DNA of 64,000 bases from Wenjunlia vitaminophila DSM 41686. GTDB lineage: Bacteria; Actinomycetota; Actinomycetes; Streptomycetales; Streptomycetaceae. Positions 3,420 through 28,307 of this stretch are shown piece by piece. Each line of letters opens with the position of its first letter. Position 1 is the stretch's first letter. The position numbers were made by a program, and so were the translations under genes. The stretch is taken from NCBI RefSeq assembly GCF_000380165.1, contig NZ_KB904724.1:144324-208323 (forward strand). Direction: 5' to 3'. Below the pieces are notes generated by a model. That model saw only the letters and a program-made list of their open reading frames with translations. It was not told where the DNA came from and did no database searches.

Positions 3420-3907
3420 GGGAGCAGATTAGCCATCGACGGCCAGACCGCGATTTGCCGCACGGAACAGTCCATGCTCCTGCGACACCCCAGCACACAC
3501 AGTGACTCCAACGACCGCTTGGGCAGCAGTACTCGCGACAGTTGAATACGCGAGTCCACCAGTATCAACCCCGCTCACCGACCCACCGGCCAGCCGCCGC
3601 CCCCAGCCCGCACGGCTCCCGGCCGGCAGCGTCGCCCCGCCGCGCCGTGGACGCCCCTGCCGAGGCGAAGCCGCTCGCCCTTCGTACTCAGTCCTACCAG
3701 ATCTTGCTTGCTCACACGCTGGCCACCGTGCCGCACCGGTCGGACCCCCGTGACCAGCACGAACACCCGCTCCCCAGCGCTGCCGCCGCGCCGTCACCGG
3801 TCCCGCGCCGGACTGAGGTGGTGATCTCAGTGCCGTGTCAGCGGACTCTGCCAGAGTGGTGCTCGCAAGGACGGGGACGACGGTGACGGAGCCCCCGCCC
3901 GACGCGA
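3420..3907. other. Non-coding stretch upstream of the tRNA-like gene
   Basis: About 490 bp with no convincing gene. It contains the second copy of the 62-bp repeat. The minus-strand frame across that copy again reads SKQDLVGLSTKGERLRLGRG but then runs into low-complexity sequence, so it looks like a truncated duplicate of the start of the neighbouring hypothetical gene. No clear promoter for the tRNA-like gene could be picked out by eye. Confidence 0.4.
3654..3715. repeat. 62-bp direct repeat, copy 2
   Basis: Perfect copy of 3325-3386 in the same orientation. Here it is not followed by an intact reading frame. It lies 192 bp before the tRNA-Ser-like gene and together with copy 1 could be a scar of duplication or excision. 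Confidence 0.9.
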
Positions 3908-3999
3908 GGAGAGATTCCCGTAGCGGCCCAACGGGGACCGGGAGGCAACTTCCGGTCTAGGTCTCACGGCCTTCGCAGGTTCGAATCCTGCTCTCTCCG
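3908..3999 (+). tRNA. tRNA-Ser-like gene lacking a normal anticodon loop
   Basis: 92 nt fold as a class II tRNA. Acceptor stem GGAGAGA (3908-3914) pairs with TCTCTCC (3992-3998). T8 is present. The D stem is CCCG (3917-3920) with CGGG (3932-3935), and its loop carries the conserved GG. The T arm is 3975-3991, stem GCAGG/CCTGC and loop TTCGAAT. The long variable arm is AGGTC (3959-3963), loop TCAC, GGCCT (3968-3972). The discriminator at 3999 is G, as in bacterial serine tRNAs. The anticodon arm is abnormal: stem ACCGG (3937-3941)/CCGGT (3952-3956) encloses ten bases, GAGGCAACTT, with no T33 and no CTNNNAA pattern. It folds better as an 8-bp stem closed by a GCAA tetraloop. It therefore should not decode, yet it keeps what SerRS reads. 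The VlmJ-like gene starts 74 nt downstream. A decayed tRNA gene is the alternative, though every other stem is intact. Confidence 0.75.
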
Positions 4000-4072: not shown

Positions 4073-5035
4073 ATGCCCCAAGGCCGTTGGGCAGGTTTCG
4101 CGCTGCTCATCGCCAACCCGGCCGCCGGCGGTCGGAGTCCTGAGCTCATCGACGCGGTGGCGGCGCACTGCGCGGAGCGGGTCTCCGTCCTGGACGTGGT
4201 GCGCACCGGCTATCCGGGGCACGCCTCGGAGATCGCCGCCAAGGCCATGGACGAACGGGTGGACCTGGTCATCTCCTTCGGCGGTGACGGGACCACCCGG
4301 GAGGTGGCGTCCGGTCTCGCCCGTGCCGCGCAGGCCCGTCCCGGCCTCGCGGTGCCGCCGCTGCTGCACCTGCCGGGCGGCACCGGCAACTCCTTCTACC
4401 GGGAGGTCTGGTCCGACCAGCCGTGGCAGCGGACGGTGGACGCGGCGCTCCTCGCCGACCGGCCGTCGCTGCGTCGGGTGGACCTGGCGCACATCGTGGA
4501 CGCGGACGACTTCGCCCTGCTCGGCGCCGGTTCCGGACTGATCGCCGAGGCCCTGGTGACCGCGGCCAGGATCGCCGGGGAGAGCCACGGTCGGGACCGC
4601 TACCAGCAGAGCGTCGCGCTGACCCTGCGTGACTTCGCCCCTTACCCGGGCCGGGTGAGCGTGGACGGGCGCACGGTGCACGAGGGCACCGTCATCCTCG
4701 CCAACGTCGGCGGGGGCCGCTACCGGGGTGGCCAGTTCAAGGTGCTGCCGCACTCGGTGCTCGACGACGGCCTGCTCGACGTGTGCGTCATCGGTGGGGA
4801 ACTGAGCCTGCGTGACCTGCCGGGCCTCACCCGCGACGGGAGCCATGTGCACCGTCCCGAGGTGGTCTACGCGCGGGGACGCAGCATCGTGCTCGAGCGC
4901 ACCGACGGCAACCCGCTGACCTTCGAGTACGACGGGGAGCTGCAGACCGGTTCGGCGCAGCGGCACACCGTCGAGGTCATGCCGGGCGTCCTCCCCGTGC
5001 TCGCCCCGCCGGCCGCGCGGCCGGGCGGGGAGTGA
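4073..5035 (+). CDS. Diacylglycerol-kinase-family kinase, VlmJ-like
   Basis: 320 residues from ATG 4073 (AGGGAGAG site 6-12 nt upstream); an ATG at 4013 would abut the tRNA-like gene and is less likely. The N-terminal DAGK catalytic domain shows ANPAAGG, the nucleotide-binding FGGDGTTREV and PGGTGN. In valanimycin biosynthesis a DAGK-family enzyme, VlmJ, phosphorylates the serine-derived hydroxyl of valanimycin hydrate so that VlmK can eliminate it. Here the gene heads an operon with a di-iron oxygenase and an MmgE/PrpD protein, the VlmK family, which makes a VlmJ-type role more likely than lipid phosphorylation. Substrate identity is inferred, not shown. Confidence 0.8.
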   Translation: MPQGRWAGFALLIANPAAGGRSPELIDAVAAHCAERVSVLDVVRTGYPGHASEIAAKAMDERVDLVISFGGDGTTREVASGLARAAQARPGLAVPPLLHLPGGTGNSFYREVWSDQPWQRTVDAALLADRPSLRRVDLAHIVDADDFALLGAGSGLIAEALVTAARIAGESHGRDRYQQSVALTLRDFAPYPGRVSVDGRTVHEGTVILANVGGGRYRGGQFKVLPHSVLDDGLLDVCVIGGELSLRDLPGLTRDGSHVHRPEVVYARGRSIVLERTDGNPLTFEYDGELQTGSAQRHTVEVMPGVLPVLAPPAARPGGE

Positions 5036-5085: not shown

Positions 5086-6219
5086 ATGAACGGCCCTGAA
5101 GCGAAGACGACCACGGCCAGCGGCGGGGACAGGAACTGGACCTTCCCCATGGCCGGCGAGAACTTCTTCACCTGGGAGTACGGCAACGGCAGGGAGCGGC
5201 TGCTCAACCTGTACCAGAAGGGCAAGGACAAGCAGTGGGACAGCACCACGCGGATCGACTGGGACATCGAGGTGGACCCGTTCGACGCGCTGGGCACCCC
5301 GGAGAACACCCTCGCCCTGTACGGCTCCAAACAGTACGACAAGCTGAACACCCGTGAGCGGCAGGAGATGCGCCAGCACATGGCGTCCTGGGAGTTCAGC
5401 CAGTTCCTGCACGGCGAGCAGGGGGCGATGATCTGCTCGGCGCGGATCGTGCAGTCCGTCCCCGACCTCGACTCGAAGTTCTACGCCGCCACCCAGGTGA
5501 TGGACGAGGCCCGGCACGCCGAGATCTTCTCCCGGTTCCTGGACGAGAAGATCGGCATGCAGTACAAGATCAACCCCAATCTCCAGGCCCTGCTGGGCGA
5601 CGCGCTCAACGACTCCCGCTGGGACATGCCGTACCTGGGCATGCAGGTGCTGATCGAGGGCCTGGCGCTGGCCGCGTTCGGCATCCTGCGGGACAAGACC
5701 AACAAGCCGCTGCCCAAGCAGATCCTGGCCTACGTGATGCAGGACGAGGCGCGGCACGTGGCGTTCGGCCGGCTGGCGCTCCGGGACTACTACGCCCAGT
5801 TGTCGGCGAAGGAGATCGCCGAGCGCGAGGAGTTCGTGGTCGAGGGCTGCTACCTCATGCGGGATCGTTTCCGCATGCAGGAGGTCTGGGAGAACCTCGG
5901 CTTCGACATGGACGAGTGCATGGAGTACATGAACCGCGGCCCGCGGATGCGGGCGTTCAGGTCGTTGCTCTTCACCCGGATCGTGCCCTGTGTGCGGGAC
6001 ATCGGCCTGTGGGGGCCCAAGGTGAAGCAGGCGTACGAGGACATGGGCGTCCTGGAGATGGCCAACAGCGACCTGATCAAGCTCATGCAGTCCGACGAGG
6101 CCCAGGCGGAACTGCTGGACCGGGAACGGGCCGAGGCGGCGCGCCGGCAGGAGGCGCAGGAAATCGCCGACCGGGTGGCCGAGGTGGACCAGGCCATCAC
6201 GGCCGGCGCCGCGGAGTGA
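5086..6219 (+). CDS. Ferritin-like non-heme di-iron oxygenase (first of two)
   Basis: 377 residues; ATG 5086 follows GAGGGAGAG and is preferred over 5032. The four-helix di-iron ligand set is visible: Glu111 (HGEQG), Glu141 and His144 (MDEARH), Glu191 (LIEGL), Glu221 and His224 (QDEARH). Such proteins activate O2 for N-oxygenation, desaturation or hydroxylation. In the valanimycin pathway the di-iron enzyme VlmB performs the four-electron oxidation that installs the azoxy group. This gene lies between VlmJ- and VlmK-like genes, 50 nt after the former and overlapping the latter by four bases, so it acts in the same pathway. The cluster has a second di-iron protein (21778-22737); which one forms the azoxy group is undecided. 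Confidence 0.8.
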   Translation: MNGPEAKTTTASGGDRNWTFPMAGENFFTWEYGNGRERLLNLYQKGKDKQWDSTTRIDWDIEVDPFDALGTPENTLALYGSKQYDKLNTRERQEMRQHMASWEFSQFLHGEQGAMICSARIVQSVPDLDSKFYAATQVMDEARHAEIFSRFLDEKIGMQYKINPNLQALLGDALNDSRWDMPYLGMQVLIEGLALAAFGILRDKTNKPLPKQILAYVMQDEARHVAFGRLALRDYYAQLSAKEIAEREEFVVEGCYLMRDRFRMQEVWENLGFDMDECMEYMNRGPRMRAFRSLLFTRIVPCVRDIGLWGPKVKQAYEDMGVLEMANSDLIKLMQSDEAQAELLDRERAEAARRQEAQEIADRVAEVDQAITAGAAE

Positions 6220-7733
6220 CCTCGGCGGCGGAGGAGCCGACGGCCTCCGGGAGCACCACCGCGGTTGACTCGCTCACCCGGCGGCTGGCCCGCTGGACCG
6301 CCGGGCTGCGCCTCGACGACGTTCCCGAACGGGTGATCCCGGTCGCGGTGAGCCAGGTGATCTCCCACCTGGCCACCGTCCGGGCCTCGGTGGCCCACCC
6401 GATGGGCCGCAGGCTGCTCACCGCGTTCGGCCAACCCGACCCCGCCGACCCCGCGCGCACCGCCCACCTGCTCGCCGCGCTGTCCTCCTGCCTGTACCTG
6501 GAGGACACCATGTACGCCGGGCACGTGGCGCACGCCGGAGTCGGGGTGCCGGTCGCCCACCAGGAACGGCAACGCCTGGACGGACGTGGTCTCCTGGCCG
6601 CGGTCATCGCCGCCAACGAGTCCGCGGCCAGGGTCACCGCGGCGGCCACCCTGGGACCGTTCCGCGGCCAGCAGGCCTCCCACACCCACCTGGTGGCCGC
6701 GGTCGCCGCCCGGCTGCACGGTGCCGGCGCCGACCACGACGCCCTGCTCAACGCGTGGGGACTGGCCCTGGCCGCGCCGCCGCTGTGGCTGCGCCCCTCG
6801 TTCCTCGGCAGCGACGCCAAGGTGCTCTCCGCGGCCGTCCCGGTGCGCATCGCCATGGACGCCTGCGACGCCGCGGCGGCCGGCCTGACCGGCCGGGACG
6901 ACCTGCTGGAGCACCCCGACGGGGTGCTGGCCAAGTTCGCCCACGCCCCCGTCCCCGAGGCCGTGGTCGCCGGCCTCGGGGAGCGCTGGCACACCGAGAC
7001 GCTGTCGTTCAAGCTCTTCCCCGGCGCGGTCCACCTCGACGCGCTGGTGGAGTGCGCCGCGGAGCTGCACCGCCGGCTCCGTCCACGCGGGGCGGACGAC
7101 GTCGAGGCGGTGGAGATGCACGTGCCGCGGATGACCATGGTGATGAGCCGGCACGCCGGGCGCTACACCCGCGGGCCCGACTCACCCCTGGTCGCGGTCA
7201 ACATGTGGGCCGGCTACAACGTGGCCACCGCCCTGCTCACCGGCGGCCTCGGGGTCGCGGACCTGGCGGAACCACTGGTGCGTGACCCGGACCGCTGGGC
7301 ACTCGCCGGGAAGCTCACCATGATCCCCGACGAGACGCTGAGCCAGGAGGGCATCGCCGGGACCGCACCGGTCGGTGAGGCGCTGCGCCAGGCCGGGCCG
7401 CGGGCGCTGGACTGGAGGACCGAGCTGCCCGGCAAGCCCCTGGAACAGCTCCTCGAGGAACTCGGCCCGCCGAGCCCCACGTTCGAGCACGCCACCAAGA
7501 AGCTGGGCTGCCGGATGGTGGTGCGGATGGCGGACGGGCGCCGGGACAGCTACGCCATGGACGCCGGCACCGGCTCGGTGGGTTCGCCCTCCTGGTCCGC
7601 CCACCCCGAGCTGGTTCGCGACAAGCTGCTGGCCACCGGGGCGGACAAGGAGACCGCGCGGACCCTCGCCCGGCTCCCCGAACTGTCCGTGGACGAGCTG
7701 TCCCGGGTGCTGCGCCAGGTCCTCACCTGGTAG
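6216..7733 (+). CDS. MmgE/PrpD-family lyase, VlmK-like
   Basis: 505 residues. The GTG start at 6216 overlaps the stop of the di-iron gene (GTGA), giving translational coupling. The sequence matches the MmgE/PrpD superfamily along its whole length: an N-terminal all-helical domain (about 20-270) and a C-terminal domain beginning near the SFKLFPG motif, where many relatives have a Lys-x-x-Pro pattern. Members include 2-methylcitrate dehydratase. VlmK, of the same family, eliminates phosphate from phosphorylated valanimycin hydrate to give the acrylate. The adjacent VlmJ-like kinase supports the same phosphorylate-then-eliminate chemistry on the serine-derived half of the product. Confidence 0.8.
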   Translation: MTSAAEEPTASGSTTAVDSLTRRLARWTAGLRLDDVPERVIPVAVSQVISHLATVRASVAHPMGRRLLTAFGQPDPADPARTAHLLAALSSCLYLEDTMYAGHVAHAGVGVPVAHQERQRLDGRGLLAAVIAANESAARVTAAATLGPFRGQQASHTHLVAAVAARLHGAGADHDALLNAWGLALAAPPLWLRPSFLGSDAKVLSAAVPVRIAMDACDAAAAGLTGRDDLLEHPDGVLAKFAHAPVPEAVVAGLGERWHTETLSFKLFPGAVHLDALVECAAELHRRLRPRGADDVEAVEMHVPRMTMVMSRHAGRYTRGPDSPLVAVNMWAGYNVATALLTGGLGVADLAEPLVRDPDRWALAGKLTMIPDETLSQEGIAGTAPVGEALRQAGPRALDWRTELPGKPLEQLLEELGPPSPTFEHATKKLGCRMVVRMADGRRDSYAMDAGTGSVGSPSWSAHPELVRDKLLATGADKETARTLARLPELSVDELSRVLRQVLTW

Positions 7734-18087: not shown

Positions 18088-19332
18088 CTAAGCGGACGTC
18101 AGCACCAGGACCGCGTTCTGCCCACCGAAGCCGAACGAGTTGCTGACCGCCACCTCCACCCGGGTCTGTCGCGGGGCCTTGGCCACCACGTCCAGTTCCA
18201 CCGCCGGGTCCTGGCTCTCCAGGTTGGCCGTCGGCGGGATCAGCCCGTGCTGGACGGTCAGTGCGGTGGTCACCGCCTCGATCGCGCCGGCCGCCCCGAG
18301 GGCGTGCCCGACCACGCCCTTGACGGAGTTCACCGCGGGGCGGTCGCCCAGCACCCGGCGGATCATCCGGGCCTCGGAGACGTCGTTGAGCGGGGTGGAG
18401 GTCCCGTGGGCGTTGACGTGGTCCACCGCGTCCGGGGGCAGGCAGGCGTCCCGCAGGGCGGCGCGCACCGCTCGTTCGGCGCCCTGGCCCTCGGGGTCGG
18501 GCGCCGTCGCGTGGTGGGCGTCGGCGGAGGCCCCGTACCCGCTGACCATGGCGTGGATCTCCGCCCCCCGGGCCCGGGCGTGCTCGACCCGTTCCAGCAC
18601 CAGGACCGCGGCGCCCTCGGCGGGGACGAAGCCGTCGCGGTCCACGTCGAACGGCCGGGAGGCGGACGCAAGGTCCGTCTTCCGCTCGGTCAGCGCTCCC
18701 ATCTGGCTGAAGCCCGTGACGATCGACGGGACCAGCGGGGCCTCGGTCCCGCCGGTGATCACCACGTCGCACTGGCCGGAGCGGAGCAGCTCGCGGGCCA
18801 TCCCCACCGCCGTGGTGCCCGAGGCGCAGGCGGTGGCGGTGACGAAGTTCGGCCCCTTCGCGCCGCACTCGATGGCCACGTAGCCGGCGGACATGTTGAC
18901 CGACAGCATGGGGATGAGCAGCGCGGACACCCGTTCCGGGCCGAGCTCCGGGTCCAGCAGGGTCCGGTGCTGCTTCTCCCAGGTGGCGGCGCCGCCGATG
19001 CCGTTGCCCAGGACCACGCCGACCCGGGCGCCGTCCCAGGTGGCCGGGTCGAGTCCGGAGTCGGCCAGGGCCTCGGCCGCGGCGGCGATGGCGAACTGGT
19101 TGCAGCGGTCGAGGCGCCACGCCTTCTTGCGCCCGACCGCCTTCGCGCCGTTGAAGTCGGGGACCCAGCACGCGAAGTCGGCGGGCATGCCCGCCAGGGC
19201 CGGCACCCGGGAGGCCGCGGTGCCCGTTCCCGCGCTGACGCGCTCCCAGGCGGCGGACACCCCGATCCCGGCCGAGGTCACCAGGCCGACTCCGGTGATC
19301 GCGGCGTGGAACGGAGTGCGGTCGGGCTCCAT
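18088..19332 (-). CDS. Beta-ketoacyl-ACP synthase II (KAS II), cluster-specific
   Basis: 414 residues. Thiolase-fold condensing enzyme with the full Cys-His-His set: TACASG, NAHGTST and GHALGAAG. It elongates an acyl-ACP with malonyl-ACP. The start shares one base with the stop of the ACP gene (TGATG), so the pair is translated together. A separate primary fabF lies at 42599-43855, so this copy is a dedicated synthase, presumably setting chain length or providing a special acyl-ACP. Last gene of the operon that begins at 28027. Confidence 0.9.
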   Translation of the reverse strand: MEPDRTPFHAAITGVGLVTSAGIGVSAAWERVSAGTGTAASRVPALAGMPADFACWVPDFNGAKAVGRKKAWRLDRCNQFAIAAAAEALADSGLDPATWDGARVGVVLGNGIGGAATWEKQHRTLLDPELGPERVSALLIPMLSVNMSAGYVAIECGAKGPNFVTATACASGTTAVGMARELLRSGQCDVVITGGTEAPLVPSIVTGFSQMGALTERKTDLASASRPFDVDRDGFVPAEGAAVLVLERVEHARARGAEIHAMVSGYGASADAHHATAPDPEGQGAERAVRAALRDACLPPDAVDHVNAHGTSTPLNDVSEARMIRRVLGDRPAVNSVKGVVGHALGAAGAIEAVTTALTVQHGLIPPTANLESQDPAVELDVVAKAPRQTRVEVAVSNSFGFGGQNAVLVLTSA

Positions 19333-19583
19333 CAGGCGGCGCCCTGCGACGCGCCGATCTTGCTCTCGATGATCTGGGCGGCACGCTCGATGGAGTCGTC
19401 GGGCCCGAGGTCGTCGTCGCCTATCTTCACGCCCAGGTCGGCGGAGACCGCCATGGTCAGCTCCACCAGGGCCAGCGAGTCCAGTTCCAGGTCGTTGAAC
19501 GTGTCCTCGGGCTTGATCTCGTCGGCCTCGAAGCCGAACTCGGCGGTCATCAGTTCCACCAGGCGGTTGTAGACGTCGCTCAT
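19332..19583 (-). CDS. Acyl carrier protein, cluster-specific
   Basis: 83 residues, acidic, with the phosphopantetheine attachment Ser36 in LDSLAL. It carries the growing acyl chain for the adjacent KAS II and KAS III, and probably for the desaturase and the ALDH-type reductase. There is a 105-bp gap to the KAS III stop upstream, the largest in the lower part of the operon, so an internal promoter is possible. Distinct from the primary AcpP at 43970-44236, which has DSLSM at this site. Confidence 0.92.
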   Translation of the reverse strand: MSDVYNRLVELMTAEFGFEADEIKPEDTFNDLELDSLALVELTMAVSADLGVKIGDDDLGPDDSIERAAQIIESKIGASQGAA

Positions 19584-19688: not shown

Positions 19689-20702
19689 TTACCCGGGGGT
19701 CACCGCGGGCCAGCGCATGGTGCAGGACCCCCAGGCCAGGCCGCCGCCGAACGCGGTCATCAGCAGCCGGTGCCCCGGTCGCAGCAGTCCGCTGAGCGTG
19801 GCGTCGGCCAGGGCCAGGGGGATGGAGGCGGCGGCGGTGTTGCCGACCCGGTCGAGGTTGACGGCGCAGGCGTCCCTGGCGATGCCGACGCGGTCCGCGA
19901 CCGCGTGCAGGATGCGCAGGTTCGCCTGGTGCGCCACGAGCACGTCGGGGGGCGTGGACCAGCCCACGTCGGTCATGGTCTTGCGGGCCGAGGCAGTCAT
20001 CCGTTCCACCGCGTTGCGGAACACGGACTTGCCGGCCATCCGGAAGTACGGGTCCGCGTCTCCCTCCGCCGGCCGGTCCGGGTCCCTGCGGGGGTCCCGG
20101 GAACCGCCGGACGGGATCACGATGAGTTCGCTGCCGGTGCCGTCGCTGCCGAGGTCGAACGCGCCCAGGGCGCCGTCCTCGTCCGGCTGGCCGGCGCGGA
20201 GCACCACCGCCCCCGCCCCGTCCCCGAAGATCGCCCTGGTGGAGCGGTCGTGGGGGTCCAGGATGGTGGAGAAGGTGTCCGCGCCGATCACCAGCACCCG
20301 TTCGGCGCCGCCGGTGGCGATCATTCCGGCGCCGGTGGCGAGCCCGTACAGGAAGCCGGTGCAGACCGCCACCACGTCGAACGCCGCGACCGTGCCGAGG
20401 CCCAGGCGGGAGGCGACCAGCGGCGCGGTGGCCGGGCAGGGCCGGTCCGGGGTGGTGGTGGCCAGGACCACCGCGTCCACGGAGTCCACCTCGGCCGACT
20501 TCATGGCCCGTCCGCCGGCCTCCACGGCCAGGTCCGAGGTGGCCATGGTGGGGTCGGCGACGTGGCGCTGGCCGATCCCGGTGCGGCTGCGGATCCACTC
20601 GTCGCTGGTGTCCAGGACCTGCGACAGGTCGTCGTTGGTGACCACCCGCGGGGGCAGCCAGGTACCGAGGCCGCAGACCACGGCGGCCCGGCCGGCGCTC
20701 AC
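19689..20702 (-). CDS. Beta-ketoacyl-ACP synthase III (KAS III), cluster-specific
   Basis: 337 residues from a GTG at 20702 that overlaps the desaturase stop (GTGA). The catalytic triad is visible: Cys in VAVCTGF, His in AHQANLR, Asn in VGNTAAAS. KAS III enzymes start chains by condensing an acyl-CoA primer with malonyl-ACP. A second, primary FabH is at 44293-45300; the duplicate suggests that the cluster chooses its own starter unit. The fold also covers KAS III-like acyl transferases, but the complete triad argues for condensation. Confidence 0.9.
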   Translation of the reverse strand: MSAGRAAVVCGLGTWLPPRVVTNDDLSQVLDTSDEWIRSRTGIGQRHVADPTMATSDLAVEAGGRAMKSAEVDSVDAVVLATTTPDRPCPATAPLVASRLGLGTVAAFDVVAVCTGFLYGLATGAGMIATGGAERVLVIGADTFSTILDPHDRSTRAIFGDGAGAVVLRAGQPDEDGALGAFDLGSDGTGSELIVIPSGGSRDPRRDPDRPAEGDADPYFRMAGKSVFRNAVERMTASARKTMTDVGWSTPPDVLVAHQANLRILHAVADRVGIARDACAVNLDRVGNTAAASIPLALADATLSGLLRPGHRLLMTAFGGGLAWGSCTMRWPAVTPG

Positions 20703-21781
20703 TGCGCGCCCTGCGCGGCGACCCGCGGGTTCTCCAGCCGGCGCACGTCCTCGCTGACCTCGGCGAGGTAGTCGGAGACCTCGAGGTACGACTTGAGCAT
20801 GGTGCACTCGACGTAGGGCAGGCCGTTGCGCAGGCAGTAGTCCTTCACCAGCGGGTGGGCCCGGCGCAGGTTGCTGCGCGGCATCGACGGGAACAGGTGG
20901 TGCTCGATCTGGTAGTTGAGCCCGCCGTAGAGGAAGTGGGTGATCCGGTTGGGCATGAGGTTGCGGGAGGTGACGACCTGCCGGGTCAGCCAGTCCCACT
21001 CCTCCTTGTCCCCGTCCCGCACCGGCAGCCCCTTGTGGTTGGGGGCGAACAGCAGGCCCATGTAGAGGCCGAAGAGGGCCTGGTGGATGAGGATGAACAG
21101 CACGCCCTTGACCGGGGACATCACCCAGAAGACGGCGACGAGGTACACCGCGAGGTGCAGGGTGAGGACGGTCAGCTCGGTCTTCTTGTAGCGCTTGAGG
21201 GCGCCCCGGCGGGCCGCGATGAACCCGGACAGGTGCAGCCGCAGGCCCTCCATCATGATGGTGATGTAGAACATCCACGCCTGGTGCCGCACGATGAACC
21301 TGGCCAGGGCCCCGGTGCGCCGGTCGCGGTGCTTGGCGGTGAAGATGACCTGACGGCGCAGGATGTCCGGGTCCTTGGACAGGTGGTTGGGGTAGTTGTG
21401 GTGCTGCGTGTGGTGGCCCACCCACCAGCCGAAGCTCACCCCGGACAGCACGTTGCCGTGGATGTAGCCGACCACCTCGTTGCCGCGCTTGGTGCGGAAG
21501 AGCTGCCGGTGGCCGGCGTCGTGCCCGATCAGGTCGGTCTGGGTGGTGACGAACGCCAGCAGGACCGCGACGGCCATCTGCCACCACGAGTCGCCCACCA
21601 CCACGAACAGCGCCCAGGAGCCGATGAGCAGCAGCGCGTTAACCGTGATCTTGTACGTGTAGTAGCCGGGCCGGACATCCATCAGCCCCGCGTCCCGCAC
21701 CAGCTTGGAGATCTCCTCGAAACTGCCGGTGTGGGACAGCGTCCCGCTGTTGGCCGCCGCCGGGCGCTCGACATCGGTCAC
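20699..21781 (-). CDS. Membrane fatty acid desaturase
   Basis: 360 residues from GTG 21781, overlapping the upstream di-iron gene stop. Three histidine clusters of integral-membrane desaturases are seen: HDAGH, HHTQHH and QIEHH, with paired membrane helices between them (about 55-95 and 175-225). The family inserts double bonds into acyl-lipid, acyl-CoA or acyl-ACP chains. In this operon it probably makes an unsaturated chain, which would fit alkenyl azoxy products, or it may act late on the alkyl-azoxy intermediate. Substrate is inferred. Confidence 0.88.
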   Translation of the reverse strand: MTDVERPAAANSGTLSHTGSFEEISKLVRDAGLMDVRPGYYTYKITVNALLLIGSWALFVVVGDSWWQMAVAVLLAFVTTQTDLIGHDAGHRQLFRTKRGNEVVGYIHGNVLSGVSFGWWVGHHTQHHNYPNHLSKDPDILRRQVIFTAKHRDRRTGALARFIVRHQAWMFYITIMMEGLRLHLSGFIAARRGALKRYKKTELTVLTLHLAVYLVAVFWVMSPVKGVLFILIHQALFGLYMGLLFAPNHKGLPVRDGDKEEWDWLTRQVVTSRNLMPNRITHFLYGGLNYQIEHHLFPSMPRSNLRRAHPLVKDYCLRNGLPYVECTMLKSYLEVSDYLAEVSEDVRRLENPRVAAQGAQ

Positions 21782-22737
21782 AGCGCTTCCTCCAGGCCCA
21801 TGTACACCAGTCGCTGCTGCTGCATGCGGTCGGCCCACTCGTGCGCGGTGGCGATGCGCTCGTCCGGGGTGGTGTCCACCAGGCGTCGGCCCGGCCACAC
21901 CTCGTAGTCCCCGAGCAGGTGCCCGTGCTCCTCGATGCCCTGCTGGAACAGGCCCTCGCGGCGCTCCATCATCGCCTGGGCCGGCAGGTCCTTCCACAGG
22001 TGCCGGCCGCTGTTGATCAGCTCGAGGATGCGGTCCTTCTCCTCGGGGTGCTTCAGCAGGTACTCGCGGGCGATGGAGCTGCCGACGGTGAGGTGCCGGA
22101 TCTCGTCGATCGCTGCCCCGCGCTCGATCTCGGACGCCGCCGGATCGAAGATCTTCCACTTGCGCTCGCTCAGTTCGGCGGCGGGTGCGAGCACGCCCTC
22201 GACGAGGATGGTGAGCACCACGACCCCGCCGATGAAGTCGCTCTCGTCGCGCAGCACCCGCAGGCCCAGGTCCTCGAGCGGCACCAGGATGCCGTCCTTG
22301 TCCTCGCGGGCCAGCCGTTCGATGGACTGCCACAGCTCGGCCTGGGGGATGCCCAGGTCCAGCAGGTGGCTGCGGAAGACCATGGCGTGCCGGGCCTCGT
22401 CCATGAGCTGGGTGGCGTAGAACTCCATGGAGTCGTTGTCGGGGGCGAGCGCCACCAGGTAGGAGATGGCCCGGGTGGCCTTCTCCTCGGCGATCGACCG
22501 GAACGCCAGCTCCTGGGTGAGCGCGTCGTTCAACGGCCCGGGCCGGCTGGTGATCTCCGGGGTGCCGACGTCGTCGGCGTGGCCCAGCACATTGCCGCGC
22601 AACGTTCCCTGGGGGACCGCGCGGAGCCAGTACTGGAGGTTGCAGGAGGCCGCGGTCAGCTCAAGGCTCATGGCCCCGTCGACCAGCGAGGGGGCGTTCT
22701 CCCAGTCGGCCTCGGCAGGGATCTTCTGGTCGGTCAA
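21778..22737 (-). CDS. Ferritin-like non-heme di-iron oxygenase (second of two), VlmB candidate
   Basis: 319 residues. Di-iron ligands: Glu84/Glu85 region (IAEEKATR), Glu114 and His117 (MDEARH), Glu180 (LVEGVL), Glu212 and His215 (DEIRH). It starts 3 nt after the small membrane-protein gene proposed as VlmO-like. In valanimycin biosynthesis VlmB acts directly after VlmO, oxidising the N-N bonded hydrazine to the azoxy compound, so this one is the better VlmB candidate by position. The first di-iron protein (5086-6219) would then perform another oxidation, such as desaturation or hydroxylation. The assignment could be the other way round. Confidence 0.8.
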   Translation of the reverse strand: MTDQKIPAEADWENAPSLVDGAMSLELTAASCNLQYWLRAVPQGTLRGNVLGHADDVGTPEITSRPGPLNDALTQELAFRSIAEEKATRAISYLVALAPDNDSMEFYATQLMDEARHAMVFRSHLLDLGIPQAELWQSIERLAREDKDGILVPLEDLGLRVLRDESDFIGGVVVLTILVEGVLAPAAELSERKWKIFDPAASEIERGAAIDEIRHLTVGSSIAREYLLKHPEEKDRILELINSGRHLWKDLPAQAMMERREGLFQQGIEEHGHLLGDYEVWPGRRLVDTTPDERIATAHEWADRMQQQRLVYMGLEEAL

Positions 22738-22740
22738 CGG

Positions 22741-23229
22741 TCAACTCCTCGTATCGACCTGCTCGACGAGCAGGGCGCGGTCGGTGCTTGCTGCCTCGAA
22801 CTCGCTGCGGAACCGCAGGTAGGCGGGGTGGGCGACCGGTTCGAAGTGCAGGGCGAAGGGCTTCAGGAAGTTCCCGAACAGCGCACGGTCACCGCACAGG
22901 TGGATGGGCAGGGCCAGCAGCGCCCACTCCGGACCCCACAGCCAGATCCACAGCAGCGTGACCAGACCCTGGGTGACCAGACTGTGCATGGTGTTGTAGA
23001 GGACGTAGTAGACCTTGGAGATCTGCTTGTCCTTGCTCCGGTGGTAGACGATCGCCCCCGGGATGTACCCGATGAGGTCGATGTAGACGAAGAGCCCGGC
23101 GAAGGCCCACCAGTTGATGTCCCCCAGGTGGACGAAGAACAGGGTGCTGGCCACGACCAGGCCGAGCCCGTACTCCGCCCGCAGCAACCGGTAGGTGGTG
23201 GGGGTCTCGAAGTGGTTCTTCCCGTCCAT
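22741..23229 (-). CDS. Small integral membrane protein, VlmO-like N-N bond-forming candidate
   Basis: 162 residues with about four membrane helices (roughly 18-36, 40-62, 82-99, 100-116). Polar residues lie in or near the membrane: His34, Asp51, His63, His82, His110, Asp114. VlmO, a membrane protein of the valanimycin pathway, converts O-seryl-alkylhydroxylamine to the N-N bonded hydrazine acid. Size, topology and neighbours (di-iron oxygenase 3 nt downstream, N-hydroxylase upstream) fit that role. No sequence comparison could be run, so homology to VlmO is inferred from context and general character only. Confidence 0.6.
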   Translation of the reverse strand: MDGKNHFETPTTYRLLRAEYGLGLVVASTLFFVHLGDINWWAFAGLFVYIDLIGYIPGAIVYHRSKDKQISKVYYVLYNTMHSLVTQGLVTLLWIWLWGPEWALLALPIHLCGDRALFGNFLKPFALHFEPVAHPAYLRFRSEFEAASTDRALLVEQVDTRS

Positions 23230-23733: not shown

Positions 23734-25050
23734 TCAGCCACCTTCTGATGTGGGTGCGTACCGGGCTGCCTGCATCTGGCAGGCGCGGTCAACTGCCGCG
23801 TAGAGGAAGTCCACGTCGTCCCTGGTCAGGACCGCGGGCGGGGTGAGCCGCAGGACCAGGTGGGAGTTGAGCGAGTGGTTGGCGACCACGCCCTGCAGGG
23901 CGAGCTCGATCAACAGGTCCCCGGCGGGTCCCGGCTCGGCGAACTCGATGCCCAGCAGCAGTCCGCGCCCGCGCACCTCGCGGACCGCGTCGCCGAAGTG
24001 GCCGCGGACGATGGCGCCGAGGTTCGGCAGCAGTTCGTCACCGAGTTCCCTGGCCCGCTCCACCAGCCCGTCCTCGCGCATCGCGGCGATGGACCCGCGG
24101 GCCGCGGCCATCGCGAGCGGCACCTGGGAGAACGTCGAGGTGTGCAGGTAGGGGTCCTTGTCGAAGACGGAGAACGCCTCGCGGGTGGCCACTGCGGCCG
24201 AGACCGGGACCACCCCGCCGCTGAGGCCCTTGCCGACCAGCAGCACGTCGGGGGTGACGTCCTCGAAGTCCGCTCCCCACCAGGAGCCGAGCCGGCCCAT
24301 GCCGGTCTGGATCTCGTCGAGCACGAAGAACGCGTCGTACTGGCGGCACAGCTCCTGCACGGCGCGCAGGTAGCCGTCCGGTGGGATGACCACACCGGCC
24401 TCGCCCTGGACCGGTTCGACCACCACGCACGCCTCGCCCCCCGAGTCGGCCAACACCGCGCGCAGCGCCCCGGTGTCACCGAACGGCACGTGGGTGGTCA
24501 GGGACAGCAGGGGCCGGAACGGCTCCTGGAAGACGTCCTTGCCGGTGAGGCTGAGCGCGCCCATGGTCTTGCCGTGGTAGCCGTCGCGCATGGCGACCAG
24601 CCGGCGCTTGCCGTGGGTGCGGGCCATCTTGATCGCGGTCTCCACGGCCTCCGCGCCGGACAGCGCGAAGTGCACGCGTTCCAGGCCGGGCGGGCAGATC
24701 GAGACCAGGTCGTCGGCGGCGAGCGCGGCCTGCGGCTCGAGGAAGATCCTGGTGGCCACGGGGTGCCGGCCGAGCTGCTCGGTCACGTACCGCAGCACCG
24801 TGGGGTGCCGGGCGCCGGTGAGCAGCACGCCGTAGCCACCGCAGTTGAGGAATCGTTTACCCTCGCTCGTGGTGACCCAGGCACCCTCGGAAGCCACCTC
24901 GATGTGGCCGCCGAACATCTCGCCGAGCACGGCGCGGCCCTTGTTGAGCCGGGTGCGGTACAGCCGTCCCAGCTCCTCACGGCCCGGGACGTCGGCGGTG
25001 GCTGGTGACGCGGCCCCGGACGCGGGCCGCGTGGTCGGCGTGATACTCAT
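23734..25050 (-). CDS. Class III PLP aminotransferase (fatty aldehyde to alkylamine)
   Basis: 438 residues. Class III signature FFVLDEIQTGMGRLG, and the PLP lysine in LLVGKGLSGG, about 30 residues later; SGAEAVETAIKMAR is the phosphate-binding helix. The family includes ornithine and long-chain omega-amino transaminases. With an acyl reductase two genes upstream and an amine N-hydroxylase between them, it most likely transaminates a fatty aldehyde to a primary alkylamine. That would replace the valine decarboxylase route that makes isobutylamine for valanimycin. Only 9 bases separate it from the N-hydroxylase gene. Confidence 0.88.
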   Translation of the reverse strand: MSITPTTRPASGAASPATADVPGREELGRLYRTRLNKGRAVLGEMFGGHIEVASEGAWVTTSEGKRFLNCGGYGVLLTGARHPTVLRYVTEQLGRHPVATRIFLEPQAALAADDLVSICPPGLERVHFALSGAEAVETAIKMARTHGKRRLVAMRDGYHGKTMGALSLTGKDVFQEPFRPLLSLTTHVPFGDTGALRAVLADSGGEACVVVEPVQGEAGVVIPPDGYLRAVQELCRQYDAFFVLDEIQTGMGRLGSWWGADFEDVTPDVLLVGKGLSGGVVPVSAAVATREAFSVFDKDPYLHTSTFSQVPLAMAAARGSIAAMREDGLVERARELGDELLPNLGAIVRGHFGDAVREVRGRGLLLGIEFAEPGPAGDLLIELALQGVVANHSLNSHLVLRLTPPAVLTRDDVDFLYAAVDRACQMQAARYAPTSEGG

Positions 25051-25059
25051 GTTTCTCCC

Positions 25060-26196
25060 TCAGGTCAGACGGAGCGGCCGGCCCGCGACGTGGTCCAGGA
25101 ACGGCCCGGTGAAGCTGTCCCGGGACGGCGGGTGGAAGGAGAGCCCGTGGGAGGCGGCGGCGAGGTACGACACCTCGTCCGAGCCGATGAACGCCATACC
25201 GCCGAGCAGTTCCACCGCGCGGTTGCGGGCGTCCCCCAGCGCGTCCTGGGCCGCGTACCTGGCGACCAGCGACTTGGCGAGGCCGGCGTTGTCGGCCTCG
25301 CCGTCCCTGATCATGCGGGCGGTGCCCTCGAGCAGGAGCTGCGCGGTCTCCAGCCGGGCCACCAACCGCGCCCGGTCCGAGTCGCTGCCCCGGCCCCGGA
25401 CCAGCACCCTCTCCACCAGGGTGCTGACCATGCCCAGGTAGCAGGCGGAGATCAGCAGCTCGAACCAGATGAAGCCCACGGTCTGGAGCTGGTCCAGCTC
25501 CCCGGCCTCGCCGAGCTCGGTGCGCATCAGCAGTTGCTCGTCGACGAAGACGTTCTCCAGCCGCACCTCGTCGCTCTCCGCACCGGCCAGGGTCCTGGTC
25601 CCCCAGAACGGGTGGACACTGATCCCCTCGGTCTCCCGGGGCACCAGCAGCACGGCCATCTGCTCACCGCCGTCGTCGGTGGGCAGCGACACGCTCGCGG
25701 TGAGCAGGCTCATCGAGTGGGCCAGGCTGCACGGCTTCTTGGCGCCGTTGATCAGGAAACCGCCCTCGGCCTTGCTCGCGGTCATGGTGGGGGTCAGGAT
25801 GCCCCGGCCCGGCTGGCCCTCGGCGAACCCCGAGGCGACCAGCAGCCCCTGCTCGGCGATCCCCTCGAGCAGCGCCCATTCCATGCCGCTGCTCTGGATG
25901 CTGTCGGCGAGGGTGAACAGGGTCGCGACGGAGAAGTGGTGCATGGTGGTGCCGACGGCCAGCGACGGCGCCCGCGAGGCCAGGGCGCGGGTCACCGCGA
26001 GCGCCTGGACCGGGTCGGCCCCACCCCCCTTGTACTCCTTGGGGATCACCAGACCCGGTCCGCCACGGGCACGGAAGCGGTCCATGGCGGGACTCTTCGG
26101 GGCTTCCAACTCGGCGAGCGGGATCGCGGCGAGGTCGTCGAGCAGTCCGGGCAGGAACGATTCGCAGACATCCTTGGCGGCTTCCAACGAGCGCAT
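25060..26196 (-). CDS. Acyl-CoA-dehydrogenase-fold flavoprotein, VlmH-like alkylamine N-hydroxylase
   Basis: 378 residues; ATG 26196 follows GAGGAAAG. It has the ACAD layout: a helical N-domain, a central beta-domain and a C-terminal helical bundle with a GGMAFIG-type segment. The N-terminal part is divergent. VlmH (isobutylamine N-hydroxylase) belongs to this class of flavin monooxygenases and works with a flavin reductase, VlmR. Here the gene directly precedes the amine-forming aminotransferase, favouring N-hydroxylation over acyl-CoA oxidation. No flavin reductase gene is recognised in the window, so reduced flavin would come from elsewhere. Confidence 0.8.
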   Translation of the reverse strand: MRSLEAAKDVCESFLPGLLDDLAAIPLAELEAPKSPAMDRFRARGGPGLVIPKEYKGGGADPVQALAVTRALASRAPSLAVGTTMHHFSVATLFTLADSIQSSGMEWALLEGIAEQGLLVASGFAEGQPGRGILTPTMTASKAEGGFLINGAKKPCSLAHSMSLLTASVSLPTDDGGEQMAVLLVPRETEGISVHPFWGTRTLAGAESDEVRLENVFVDEQLLMRTELGEAGELDQLQTVGFIWFELLISACYLGMVSTLVERVLVRGRGSDSDRARLVARLETAQLLLEGTARMIRDGEADNAGLAKSLVARYAAQDALGDARNRAVELLGGMAFIGSDEVSYLAAASHGLSFHPPSRDSFTGPFLDHVAGRPLRLT

Positions 26197-26326: not shown

Positions 26327-28027
26327 TCAGCGGCTGCCGTTGCGCATCGCGTGCCAGGCGCCGAAGACGGAGTCCCGGGGGCGGGTGCCGGGGGCGGCCA
26401 CCGCCACGCCCTGGACGTGCGAGGTGCGCAGGATGGGGTAGTTGGCCTCGCCGAAGACACCGCCGGTCAGGCCGGTGCCGCCGTGCGTGGGCAGGTAGGA
26501 CAGGAAGCCGATGTGCGAGTCGTTCACCTTCAACAGGCCACCGGTGGTGACCCGGGACACGAACCGGTCCACCACCTGCGGGTCCCGCGCCCACAGCGAG
26601 TTCCGCAACCCGTACTCGTTGCTGTTGACGTAGTCGATGAACCGCTCCAGCAGGACGTCGTCGTCGGCCGGCTCCGCCGCGATCACCGGGAGCAGTGGGA
26701 AGAACGTCTCGTGGCGGACCGCCTTGACCTCGCGGGCCCCCGCCAGGCCGCGCACCAGGACCACCGTCGGCTCCAGGAAGATGCCGGCGGTGTCCCGGGT
26801 CTCGTCCATCTGCATGGCGTGCCCGCCGCACACCAACTCGGCGCCCCTGGCCAGCGCGTCGTCCAGACAGTCGAAGAACTTCTCGTTCCGCAGCACCGGC
26901 GTCAGCAGCACGTCCTCCTCCCCGGGGTGTCCGGGGCGGATGTGGCCGACCTTCCGGGCCAGCAGGGCAACCAGCTCATCGACGACGTCCGGGTGCGCCA
27001 CCACCTGGTTGGGGATCATGCAGAGCTGACCCGAACCGTAGAAACTCTCGGTCAGCGCCTCCGCGGCCAGCTCCAGGTCGGCGTCCTTCCAGACCACCAC
27101 CGCGTCGTTGCCGGCCAGCTCCAGGATGGGCTTCTTGCCGGCGGCGACGCAGCGCTCCTGGAACTTCATGCCGTTCTCGCTGTTGCCGAAGTACATGATG
27201 TCGTCCACCGCGGGGCTCTCCAGCCAGGCGGTGAGCATCGGGGCCGGGTCGCCGCAGACCACGTTGAGCGTGCCGGGCGGGGCACCGACCTCCTCCAGCA
27301 CCGGGGCCACCACCTCGTGCAGCACGTACATCACCCCGAGCGGGCCGCTGCGCGGGGCGCGGACCACCAGCGCGTTGCCGGCCATCACCGCGTTCACCCC
27401 GAGCAGGGCGCTGGACAACGGCGCGTTCTGCGGCGGGTTCAGGCACACCACCCCGTCCGGCTGCCGGCGCACCACGATCCGCCGCCCGTCGTGCCGGAAC
27501 TCCTGGTGCATCTGCGACCGGTAGAAGCCGAGCGACTCCGGGCCGAAGCACTCGAGCATGCCCGAGACCTGCCAGCGGGCCAGGGCCAGCGGGTGCCCCT
27601 CCTGGACCAGGATCTCGGTGATCTCCTCCGCCTTCTCCGCGAGCCTGCGGTGGATGCCCGCGCCGACCGCGGTCAACCGGGTCTCCAGGGGGAAGGCCGC
27701 CCACTGCGGGGCCGCCCGGGAGGCCGCCTCCACCGCGAGCTGCACCGTGGCCCGGTCCGCCTTGGCGACCCGGCCCACGATGCTGGCGGGCAGGTCCTGG
27801 GCGGGAACCCGTCCCTGTTCCAGCTTCCGCTTCAGGGTCAGGCTCGAGAACGCGTCCTCAAGCAGAGCCGCAGCGTCCACGACGTACACCCAGTCGGTGC
27901 TCGGCACCCCCTTGCCGTCGATGTAGGAGAGGTAGGTGCGAACGTCCTGACCGGCCCGGCGGGGCGGGGCGGACGCGGCGGGATCCCGTCGGCGTGACAC
28001 CGGTGCCGACAACTCGAGGCTGCTCAC
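26327..28027 (-). CDS. Aldehyde-dehydrogenase-superfamily protein, candidate acyl-ACP/CoA reductase
   Basis: 566 residues from a GTG at 28027 with a strong AGCGGAGGAAAG site. ALDH-superfamily domain from about residue 80. The catalytic Cys lies in GSGQLCMIPN and the Glu in LELAGND, and the C-terminal RTSHVQG segment closes the fold. The N-terminal 70 residues are an extension. Being first in an operon with ACP, aminotransferase and amine oxidase genes, it more likely reduces acyl-thioester to fatty aldehyde than oxidises an aldehyde. The retained Glu is also compatible with ordinary dehydrogenase activity, so the direction is inference. Confidence 0.75.
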   Translation of the reverse strand: MSSLELSAPVSRRRDPAASAPPRRAGQDVRTYLSYIDGKGVPSTDWVYVVDAAALLEDAFSSLTLKRKLEQGRVPAQDLPASIVGRVAKADRATVQLAVEAASRAAPQWAAFPLETRLTAVGAGIHRRLAEKAEEITEILVQEGHPLALARWQVSGMLECFGPESLGFYRSQMHQEFRHDGRRIVVRRQPDGVVCLNPPQNAPLSSALLGVNAVMAGNALVVRAPRSGPLGVMYVLHEVVAPVLEEVGAPPGTLNVVCGDPAPMLTAWLESPAVDDIMYFGNSENGMKFQERCVAAGKKPILELAGNDAVVVWKDADLELAAEALTESFYGSGQLCMIPNQVVAHPDVVDELVALLARKVGHIRPGHPGEEDVLLTPVLRNEKFFDCLDDALARGAELVCGGHAMQMDETRDTAGIFLEPTVVLVRGLAGAREVKAVRHETFFPLLPVIAAEPADDDVLLERFIDYVNSNEYGLRNSLWARDPQVVDRFVSRVTTGGLLKVNDSHIGFLSYLPTHGGTGLTGGVFGEANYPILRTSHVQGVAVAAPGTRPRDSVFGAWHAMRNGSR

Positions 28028-28307
28028 GCTTTCCTCCGCTTTCTCCTGCCCTTGCGAGCGGCACGGGCATATGCGACATGCGGTGCGTCGGCGAGAACTC
28101 TCTCAGCAGCACCTGAAAACCTTCGGAGACCGCACTGAGACCGCCCCGTCAGCGGGGTGCAAGAGCGAAGGAGGAGCGTGGTCGTCCGGGCGGACGGCAC
28201 CGCGGCCCGGGGCCGGCCGGCCTGGCGAGCTGCACCGGAGCCCCCGGCGGTTCCAGCGGGCACCGGTAGGCCTCACCGGCGTCGGCGCGACGGCAGGAGG
28301 AGCGAAC
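28028..28307. promoter_or_regulatory. Divergent promoter region of the main operon and the DUF2156 gene
   Basis: 280 bp between the heads of the ten-gene minus-strand operon and the plus-strand aminoacyl-transferase gene. It is the natural control point for the pathway. The part next to the minus-strand operon (28060-28140) is less GC-rich. Repeats suitable for a SARP were looked for but not clearly found. Confidence 0.5.

What the first reader, a model, noticed from the sequence alone, without database searches (positions are those of the whole stretch)
3908..3999. Serine tRNA-like gene without an anticodon loop, next to a seryl-tRNA-consuming pathway
Seen: a 92-nt class II cloverleaf with intact acceptor, D, T and long variable arms, T8, a TTCGAAT T loop and G at the discriminator. 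The anticodon arm has 20 bases instead of 17 and folds as an 8-bp stem with a GCAA tetraloop, so no decoding is expected. Known: SerRS recognises the variable arm and acceptor, not the anticodon; VlmA-type enzymes take serine from Ser-tRNA. Inference: this is a tRNA set aside for biosynthesis, charged by SerRS and used by the DUF2156 enzyme at 28308-29306, sparing the ribosomal Ser-tRNA pool. It starts 165 bp upstream of the VlmJ-like gene. I know of no described anticodon-free tRNA in an azoxy cluster.
Basis: partly seen in the sequence, partly recalled or inferred. Interest (0 to 1): 0.95.

Follow-up and report, generated by a model that had tools for sequence, protein, structure and literature searches.

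The report
Anticodon-free serine carrier RNAs
Gene clusters for azoxy antibiotics in Streptomyces and relatives carry a conserved family of serine-tRNA-shaped RNAs that have no anticodon loop; they likely never decode and would instead be charged with serine and hand it to a biosynthetic enzyme rather than to the ribosome.

Summary
Window 3908-3999 is a class II, tRNA-Ser-like cloverleaf whose anticodon arm is a closed hairpin (GCAA loop). A sister species has two tandem copies. A covariance search finds strong relatives in 41 of 394 genomes of the family. All 107 different sequences collected keep three tRNA-Ser-type acceptor pairs and G73; the bottom arm varies, pairs by compensation, and in no predicted fold has a 7-nt loop. 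Presence matches one VlmA-type transferase group: 41 of 41 genomes (one by a partial VlmA match), 0 of 353 others, 23 of which have other VlmA relatives. The best 22 hits of a paralogous SerRS all lie in element genomes. 85 of 89 upstream regions carry SARP-type boxes, also found before core azoxy operons. Kitasatospora setae's valanimycin-type cluster has two copies just before vlmJ. Best reading: a dedicated, non-decoding serine carrier for azoxy biosynthesis. Expression, charging and use by VlmA are inferred, not shown; the role of copies far from the cluster is open. Nine searches of an open-licence paper library found no description.

The parts
3825..3860 (+). SARP-type boxes at 11-bp pitch (TCTCAG, TGTCAG, TCTGCCA) and presumed promoter of the element
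   Evidence: same arrangement upstream of 85 of 89 first copies
3908..3999 (+). anticodon-free tRNA-Ser-like RNA gene (acceptor, D, closed bottom hairpin with GCAA, long variable arm, T arm, G73)
   Evidence: family
4073..5035 (+). VlmJ-like kinase (DAGK_cat / YegS_C)
   Evidence: PF19279 is the VlmJ-type family named in PMC9379638
5032..6219 (+). AurF-like diiron protein
6216..7733 (+). VlmK-like MmgE/PrpD protein
18088..19332 (-). beta-ketoacyl-ACP synthase of the core operon
19332..19583 (-). acyl carrier protein (same protein cluster as L092:13199-13438, PP-binding)
19689..20702 (-). ketoacyl-ACP synthase III-like
20699..21781 (-). fatty acid desaturase
21778..22737 (-). weak R2-like oxidase match; VlmB-like by inference
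   Evidence: (E 1.1e-4), no Pfam match
22741..23229 (-). VlmO-like membrane protein (weak DUF4260 match, below the curated cut-off)
   Evidence: DUF4260 link from PMC9379638
23231..23728 (-). polyketide cyclase/dehydrase-like (same protein cluster as L105:5385-5876)
23734..25050 (-). class III aminotransferase
25060..26196 (-). acyl-CoA-dehydrogenase-like, VlmH-like by inference (N-hydroxylase)
26327..28027 (-). aldehyde dehydrogenase, first gene of the core operon
28094..28142 (-). degenerate SARP-type boxes at 11-bp pitch before the core operon
   Evidence: the strict pattern is not met here
28308..29306 (+). VlmA-type aminoacyl-tRNA-dependent transferase (LPG_synthase_C, formerly DUF2156), predicted user of the seryl-RNA
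29380..30141 (-). SARP activator (BTAD + Trans_reg_C)

Best explanation
The element belongs to a conserved family of tRNA-Ser-shaped RNAs without an anticodon loop, likely dedicated serine carriers that would be charged by seryl-tRNA synthetase and used by the VlmA-type transferase to make azoxy compounds, not by the ribosome. Shown by sequence: a near-invariant upper half with a tRNA-Ser-type acceptor, a covarying closed bottom arm, exact genome-level co-occurrence with one VlmA group, co-occurrence with a paralogous SerRS in 21 genomes, and SARP-type boxes like those before the biosynthetic operon. Inferred: the pathway activator (SARP) switches the RNA on with the pathway; RNase P and the CCA-adding enzyme mature it; a housekeeping or VlmL-like SerRS, which reads acceptor and long variable arm and not the anticodon (established knowledge, recalled), adds serine; VlmA moves the seryl group onto the alkylhydroxylamine; and the RNA cannot be drawn into decoding, so antibiotic synthesis need not compete with translation for Ser-tRNA. 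Tandem and dispersed extra copies would raise carrier supply.
For: Family and constraint: two tandem copies in the sister species; strong matches in 41 of 394 family genomes; 107 of 107 different sequences keep G1-C72, G2-C71, A3-U70, C11-G24, T8 and G73; bottom arm with both-side changes at 7 of 7 modelled pairs and no 7-nt loop in 107 minimum-energy folds. Association: 41 of 41 genomes with the VlmA group have the element, 0 of 353 others, including 23 with other VlmA relatives (Fisher 1e-56); of 43 such VlmA genes 24 have an element within 500 nt, 30 within 5 kb, 39 within 25 kb. Outside the family: Kutzneria and Nocardia beside vlmA and G652. SerRS paralog: best 22 rows in 21 genomes, all element genomes. 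Promoter: 85 of 89 versus 20 of 1780 random windows, with boxes also before cluster operons. Biochemistry from papers: VlmA makes O-seryl-isobutylhydroxylamine from seryl-tRNA and VlmL is an extra SerRS (passages of PMC9379638, PMC12945691, PMC11705231).
Against: No RNA, charging or transfer data. The VlmA and SerRS profiles were built from proteins near elements, and genomes are related, so the Fisher value overstates independence. For 4 of 43 VlmA genes no listed element lies within 25 kb (G194, G172, G196:C3, G011 on another contig), and many copies lie far from any azoxy gene, so some may serve something else. 20 of 41 element genomes lack the SerRS paralog at the cut used. 4 of 89 upstream regions miss the boxes, among them one of the K. 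setae cluster, and the window's core operon has only a degenerate set. In 63 of 80 arrays the next gene is on the same strand, which a leader role would also predict.
Confidence: 0.8

Rival explanations
1. A cis-acting tRNA-like leader: the structure sits in the 5' region of the vlmJ operon and senses SerRS or serine charging to tune the genes behind it.
For: In the window and in K. setae it lies directly before vlmJ; in 63 of 80 arrays the next gene is on the same strand.
Against: In 17 of 80 arrays the next gene is on the opposite strand; tandem arrays of 2-6 copies; dispersed copies with unrelated flanks beyond about 85 nt of promoter; in Kutzneria and Nocardia it follows the vlmA stop codon; acceptor, T arm and G73 are kept in all 107, which a leader need not keep.
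Confidence: 0.06
2. A trans-acting regulator or decoy: the RNA binds SerRS, EF-Tu or another tRNA-binding protein to slow translation or signal serine supply during antibiotic production, without donating serine.
For: SARP-type promoters and many dispersed copies would fit a regulon-wide RNA; bottom arms vary freely.
Against: Exact link to one VlmA group and absence with other VlmA relatives, plus a paralogous SerRS in 21 genomes, fit a substrate better than a general decoy.
Confidence: 0.08
3. A serine carrier used mainly by another aminoacyl-tRNA-dependent enzyme, with VlmA drawing on ordinary tRNA-Ser.
For: Many copies lie away from VlmA, in unrelated surroundings and on plasmids.
Against: No element in any of the 353 family genomes without the VlmA group; no other transferase family recurred beside the dispersed copies in the regions looked at (not searched exhaustively).
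Confidence: 0.05
4. A decayed tRNA-Ser gene or a mobile-element attachment site.
For: No anticodon loop; tRNA genes are common integration sites (recalled).
Against: Upper half 93% identical on average, compensatory changes in the lower arm, conserved promoter boxes and exact gene association.
Confidence: 0.01

Closest known systems
Canonical bacterial tRNA-Ser (SerRS substrate)
   Same: 7-bp acceptor, T arm, class II long variable arm, G73, G1-C72, G2-C71, A3-U70, C11-G24, 19-nt D arm as in the host tRNA-Ser(GGA)
   Different: anticodon arm replaced by a closed helix with mostly 3-6-nt loops; own SARP-type promoter; often tandem or dispersed
Valanimycin seryl-tRNA route (VlmA, VlmL)
   Same: VlmA-type transferase, SerRS paralog, VlmJ/VlmK, SARP in the same clusters
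   Different: the papers seen speak of seryl-tRNA only; the passages read name no dedicated RNA gene
tmRNA tRNA-like domain (recalled)
   Same: aminoacylatable tRNA-like RNA without an anticodon
   Different: no mRNA-like part, no link to ribosome rescue; ARAGORN finds no tmRNA here
Non-proteogenic staphylococcal tRNA-Gly for peptidoglycan (recalled)
   Same: tRNA set aside for non-ribosomal synthesis
   Different: keeps an anticodon, carries glycine, serves Fem enzymes
Bacillus cereus pseudo-tRNA 'tRNAOther' (PMC3399842, start of abstract seen)
   Same: tRNA-like gene that does not function in translation
   Different: flanks a genomic island; no link to a biosynthetic transferase in what I saw
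Selenocysteine tRNA (RF01852)
   Same: best Rfam match, class II-like shape
   Different: scores 30.7 of 47 bits; 7/5 acceptor/T stems, no UCA anticodon

Membership tests
Canonical tRNA-Ser | 7-bp acceptor, 5-bp T stem, T loop, T8, G18G19, long variable arm | tested here: met
Canonical tRNA-Ser | 5-bp anticodon stem with a 7-nt loop and serine anticodon | tested here: not met
   20-nt closed hairpin in the window; 0 of 107 sequences with a 7-nt first loop in the minimum-energy fold
Canonical tRNA-Ser | passes the Rfam tRNA model (RF00005) | tested here: not met
   no gathering-score match; not among 57 genome matches
SerRS substrate | sequence identity set G1-C72, G2-C71, A3-U70, C11-G24, G73 and long variable arm (set recalled) | tested here: met
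   107 of 107 for the pairs and G73; a second hairpin in the variable-arm position in 107 of 107 folds
SerRS substrate | is charged with serine | not testable with these tools
   needs aminoacylation assay
tRNA-Sec | 8/5 acceptor/T stems, long D stem, UCA anticodon (recalled), Rfam score 47 | tested here: not met
tmRNA | mRNA-like tag-coding part | tested here: not met
   ARAGORN tmRNA scan of the window; element is 92 nt
Allo-tRNA with 8/4 or 9/3 branch (recalled) | 8-9-bp acceptor with 3-4-bp T stem | tested here: not met
   7/5 in the window element; acceptor and T-stem pairs as
Non-proteogenic staphylococcal tRNA-Gly (recalled) | glycine tRNA retaining an anticodon | tested here: not met
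   no anticodon; serine-type acceptor
VlmA (partner gene, window 28308-29306) | LPG_synthase_C/DUF2156 domain beside VlmH-, VlmJ-, VlmK-, VlmO-like genes | tested here: met
VlmA (partner gene, window 28308-29306) | transfers serine from seryl-RNA to a hydroxylamine | not testable with these tools
   known for VlmA from PMC9379638 and PMC12945691 (passages)
SARP operator | short direct repeats at 11-bp pitch (recalled) with a SARP gene in the cluster | tested here: met
   85 of 89 versus 20 of 1780; SARP at 29380-30141. Binding itself not tested

The most novel reading that the evidence does not exclude
A new class of non-decoding aminoacyl carrier RNA: anticodon-free seryl-RNAs, switched on by the pathway activator, charged by a housekeeping or dedicated SerRS and consumed by VlmA-type transferases, amplified in some genomes to 14-15 or more dispersed copies and also present on plasmids: a private aminoacyl-RNA supply line for a secondary metabolite, separate from translation.
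Probability: 0.8. Interest if true: 0.97.

Novelty: categorically new. Interest (0 to 1): 0.94.

Why it matters
Natural products made from aminoacyl-tRNA are thought to draw on the tRNA pool of translation. A whole family of tRNAs that kept the charging end and lost the decoding end suggests that some bacteria separated the two pools genetically. It gives an RNA marker for one group of azoxy clusters, a reason why many of them carry an own SerRS, and natural non-decoding carriers for engineering. It makes a standing question (how antibiotic synthesis avoids competing with the ribosome for Ser-tRNA) directly testable. It also shows a blind spot of gene finders: ARAGORN reads these genes as tRNA-???, with nonsense anticodons of other amino acids, or misses them.

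Tried and rejected
Pseudogene or attachment-site remnant: rejected by conservation, covariation and promoter boxes. tRNA-Sec: rejected. Chance fold: rejected. Model R1 had a wrongly placed structure and was not used; R2 replaced it. Eight genomes with only weak R2 matches (G010, G013, G015, G034, G040, G045, G060, G069; E 7e-9 to 3e-7) fell below the 1e-10 cut with R3 and were dropped as probable ordinary tRNAs; I did not inspect them. In the VlmA tree the G073 row is a partial with a very long branch and says nothing on clade; 21 named rows identical to genome rows were merged, and the tree used only the 71 rows of known genome-wide status. The cut between the two VlmA sets (514.2 against 503.4 bits) and the SerRS cut (22 best rows, 701.6 bits and above) were set after seeing the lists; the next SerRS rows (665-683 bits) lie in G158, G072, G188 and G150 without the element and G196 with it, so the paralog lineage is not sharply bounded by score. 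The second SerRS of the window's genome (C90:139917-141167) is 38% identical to a VlmL-like one and sits with SHMT, radical SAM and carbamoyltransferase genes, so I did not count it as a dedicated charger. Gene calls in fetched loci come from my own GC3-based caller; starts are approximate. The genome search scored at most 11 candidates per genome with the RNA models, and its match lists were cut, so copy numbers are lower bounds. The 141 copies and the 102 arrays include some loci fetched twice; the 107 different sequences do not. The genome-contig scan kept 80 of 218 confirmed loci. No protein fold was predicted and no homologous-protein search was run. Literature: nine searches bear on prior description and a tenth on genome identity; none showed this RNA, but only open-licence papers are held, I read passages and listings and no whole paper, and PMC2373340 on seryl-tRNA in valanimycin synthesis is not held.

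Full report
What is there. Window 3908-3999 (+) holds a 92-nt class II cloverleaf: acceptor GGAGAGA/TCTCTCC, T8, 19-nt D arm, long variable arm, T arm GCAGG-TTCGAAT-CCTGC, G73. Where a tRNA has a 17-nt anticodon arm with a 7-nt loop, it has a 20-nt hairpin closed by GCAA. ARAGORN reports 'tRNA-???'. Rfam's tRNA model does not list it; tRNA-Sec scores 30.7 of 47 bits. The genome (6.43 Mb, 111 contigs) has four normal tRNA-Ser genes, TGA, GCT, CGA and GGA, and no second close copy of the element.

It is conserved. A covariance model found matches in 49 of 394 family genomes at E<=1e-6; a model rebuilt from 75 matches found strong ones (E<=1e-10) in 41 of 394. In 384 genomes drawn from the class, 4 matched, one of them (G652) in another family. 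From fetched loci I collected 141 copies, some fetched twice, with 107 different sequences. All 107 keep G1-C72, G2-C71, A3-U70, C11-G24, T8 and G73; the T loop is TTCGAAT in 102 and TTCAAAT in 5. The upper half averages 93% pairwise identity (105 of 107 of equal length), the lower half 65% (1500 sampled pairs). Yet the lower arm pairs: 7 of 7 modelled pairs show changes on both sides; over the whole structure 95.1% of cells are paired and the covariation score is 0.237 against 0.106 in shuffles, 0 of 500 (the alignment was fitted to the structure). In minimum-energy folds of the lower part the first loop has 3-6 nt in 103, 8 nt in 3, 10 nt in 1 and 7 nt in 0 of 107. The anticodon arm has been replaced by a closed helix of free sequence, and the helix is maintained.

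What it goes with. In 44 regions (window, three from G001, 40 fetched around elements) the recurrent gene families are those of azoxy clusters: VlmA-like LPG_synthase_C in 21 (median 226 nt from an element), SARP in 18, VlmJ-like kinase in 13 (median 67 nt), VlmK-, VlmH- and DUF4260/VlmO-like proteins, flavin reductase, aminotransferase, aldehyde dehydrogenase, and SerRS in 8. I searched the same 394 genomes with a VlmA profile: 64 have a match at E<=1e-70. Forty have a VlmA of 514 bits or more; these and G073, whose VlmA match is a 170-residue partial close to an element, are exactly the 41 element genomes. The other 23 VlmA genomes (503 bits or less) and the 330 without a match have no element (Fisher p about 1e-56; genomes are related, and the profile came from VlmA proteins of element clusters). 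A tree of 71 VlmA rows shows two all-element groups (10 rows including the window, and 33 rows) and two others (16 and 11 rows) that hold all 23 element-free genomes plus second paralogs of four element genomes (G059, G241, G378, G020). Of the 43 VlmA genes in the element groups, 24 have an element within 500 nt, 30 within 5 kb, 39 within 25 kb; the window's own distance is 24 kb, and for G194, G172, G011 and one of two in G196 no listed copy is that near. One element-free cluster carries an LCM methyltransferase, the mark of azodyrecin clusters, whose donor is proposed to be alanyl-tRNA (PMC9379638, passages). That fits as a negative control, but the alanine donor is itself a proposal.

A paralogous SerRS. 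With a profile of eight SerRS proteins found near elements, the best 22 matches lie in 21 genomes, all element genomes; 20 element genomes lack one at that cut. VlmL, an extra SerRS of the valanimycin cluster, is described as supplying seryl-tRNA (PMC9379638, passages). The window's genome lacks this group; it has a housekeeping SerRS and another one about 3.2 kb left of the window in what looks like a different cluster.

How it is switched on. Upstream of 89 first copies, 85 have GTCA or TCAG boxes at 11- or 22-bp spacing, against 20 of 1780 random windows from the same loci. The misses are the Kutzneria and Nocardia copies and two Kitasatospora ones, L140 and the K. setae pair before vlmJ (L118). 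The pattern is that of SARP operators (recalled), and a SARP gene is in the cluster (29380-30141). Of 104 two-box sites in 53 partly overlapping loci, 61 lie within 200 nt upstream of an element; of the other 43, 29 precede a recurrent cluster gene, 9 of them the aldehyde dehydrogenase that starts the core operon. A strict form of the boxes lies upstream of 42 of 69 such aldehyde dehydrogenase genes (some loci counted twice). In the window the boxes lie at 3825-3860 before the element; before the core operon there is a degenerate set at 28094-28142 (-) that fails the strict pattern. Kutzneria and Nocardia copies instead start 14 and 9 nt past the end of vlmA.

Copies. Of 102 arrays in the loci held, 82 are single and 20 have 2-6 copies. 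Some genomes have many dispersed copies (exact pattern: G206 15, G162 14, G272 8, G168 7). Around nine dispersed copies of G162 the shared unit is mostly about 85-100 nt of upstream sequence plus the element, one pair longer (329 nt), with unrelated flanks beyond. Twelve of the 40 regions show few or none of the azoxy genes. Six Streptomyces plasmid records match; the one I looked at has the boxes and a closed bottom arm beside replication genes.

Known clusters. K. setae has two VlmA loci: one with a PLP decarboxylase, VlmA, SerRS, SARP, VlmK and VlmJ, with two elements ending about 18 nt before vlmJ, and one with five tandem elements beside VlmA. PMC11705231 (passages) lists K. setae as a source of characterised valanimycin enzymes; which locus holds the cited VlmA I did not check. 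S. avermitilis has four tandem copies beside VlmA. The S. atratus JCM 3386 locus L191 has an element beside vlmA; another strain of that species is listed there for elaiomycin.

Reading. The simplest account is a dedicated serine carrier: acceptor and variable arm kept for SerRS and the transferase, decoding arm discarded, promoter taken over by the pathway. Shown: structure, conservation, association, promoter boxes. Inferred: expression, maturation, serylation, use by VlmA, benefit to translation. The role of copies far from the cluster is the main open point.

Novelty. It fails the defining feature of a tRNA (a decoding arm), is not tmRNA or tRNA-Sec, and differs from the staphylococcal tRNA-Gly and the B. 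cereus pseudo-tRNA. Nine searches of an open-licence library found no description; subscription papers are not covered.

Noticed in passing
L053:1-8247 (own contig C90:134324-142570, just left of the window): Carbamoyltransferase, radical SAM, a second SerRS and an SHMT-like gene side by side; recalls an albomycin-type SerRS-inhibitor cluster with a self-resistance SerRS, next to a pathway predicted to consume seryl-RNA.
   Followed up: partly
G162, G206, G272, G178, G194: Many dispersed element copies, in G162 several near both chromosome ends and some in mirrored pairs; a unit of promoter plus element seems to spread without a larger shared element.
   Followed up: partly
NZ_CP107797.1 (L286:5850-6120) and five other Streptomyces plasmid records: Element copies on plasmids; the one inspected lies beside replication and partition genes, with SARP-type boxes.
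   Followed up: partly
window 35035 (-): A further set of TCAG boxes at 11-bp pitch between a gene ending at 34950 and the P450 gene at 35052, pointing away from the P450 gene.
   Followed up: no
elements of L102, L211, L267, L268 and others: Many bottom arms start GACC and end GGTC around an internal loop or bulge; a recurrent internal motif may be a protein-binding site.
   Followed up: no
VlmA rows of element-free genomes (L226-L252): VlmA relatives without the element; their amino-acid donor, and whether they have a carrier RNA of another amino acid, are open.
   Followed up: no
L117 and L118 (K. setae by length): Two separate VlmA/SerRS loci in one genome, each with its own element array of different sequence.
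   Followed up: partly
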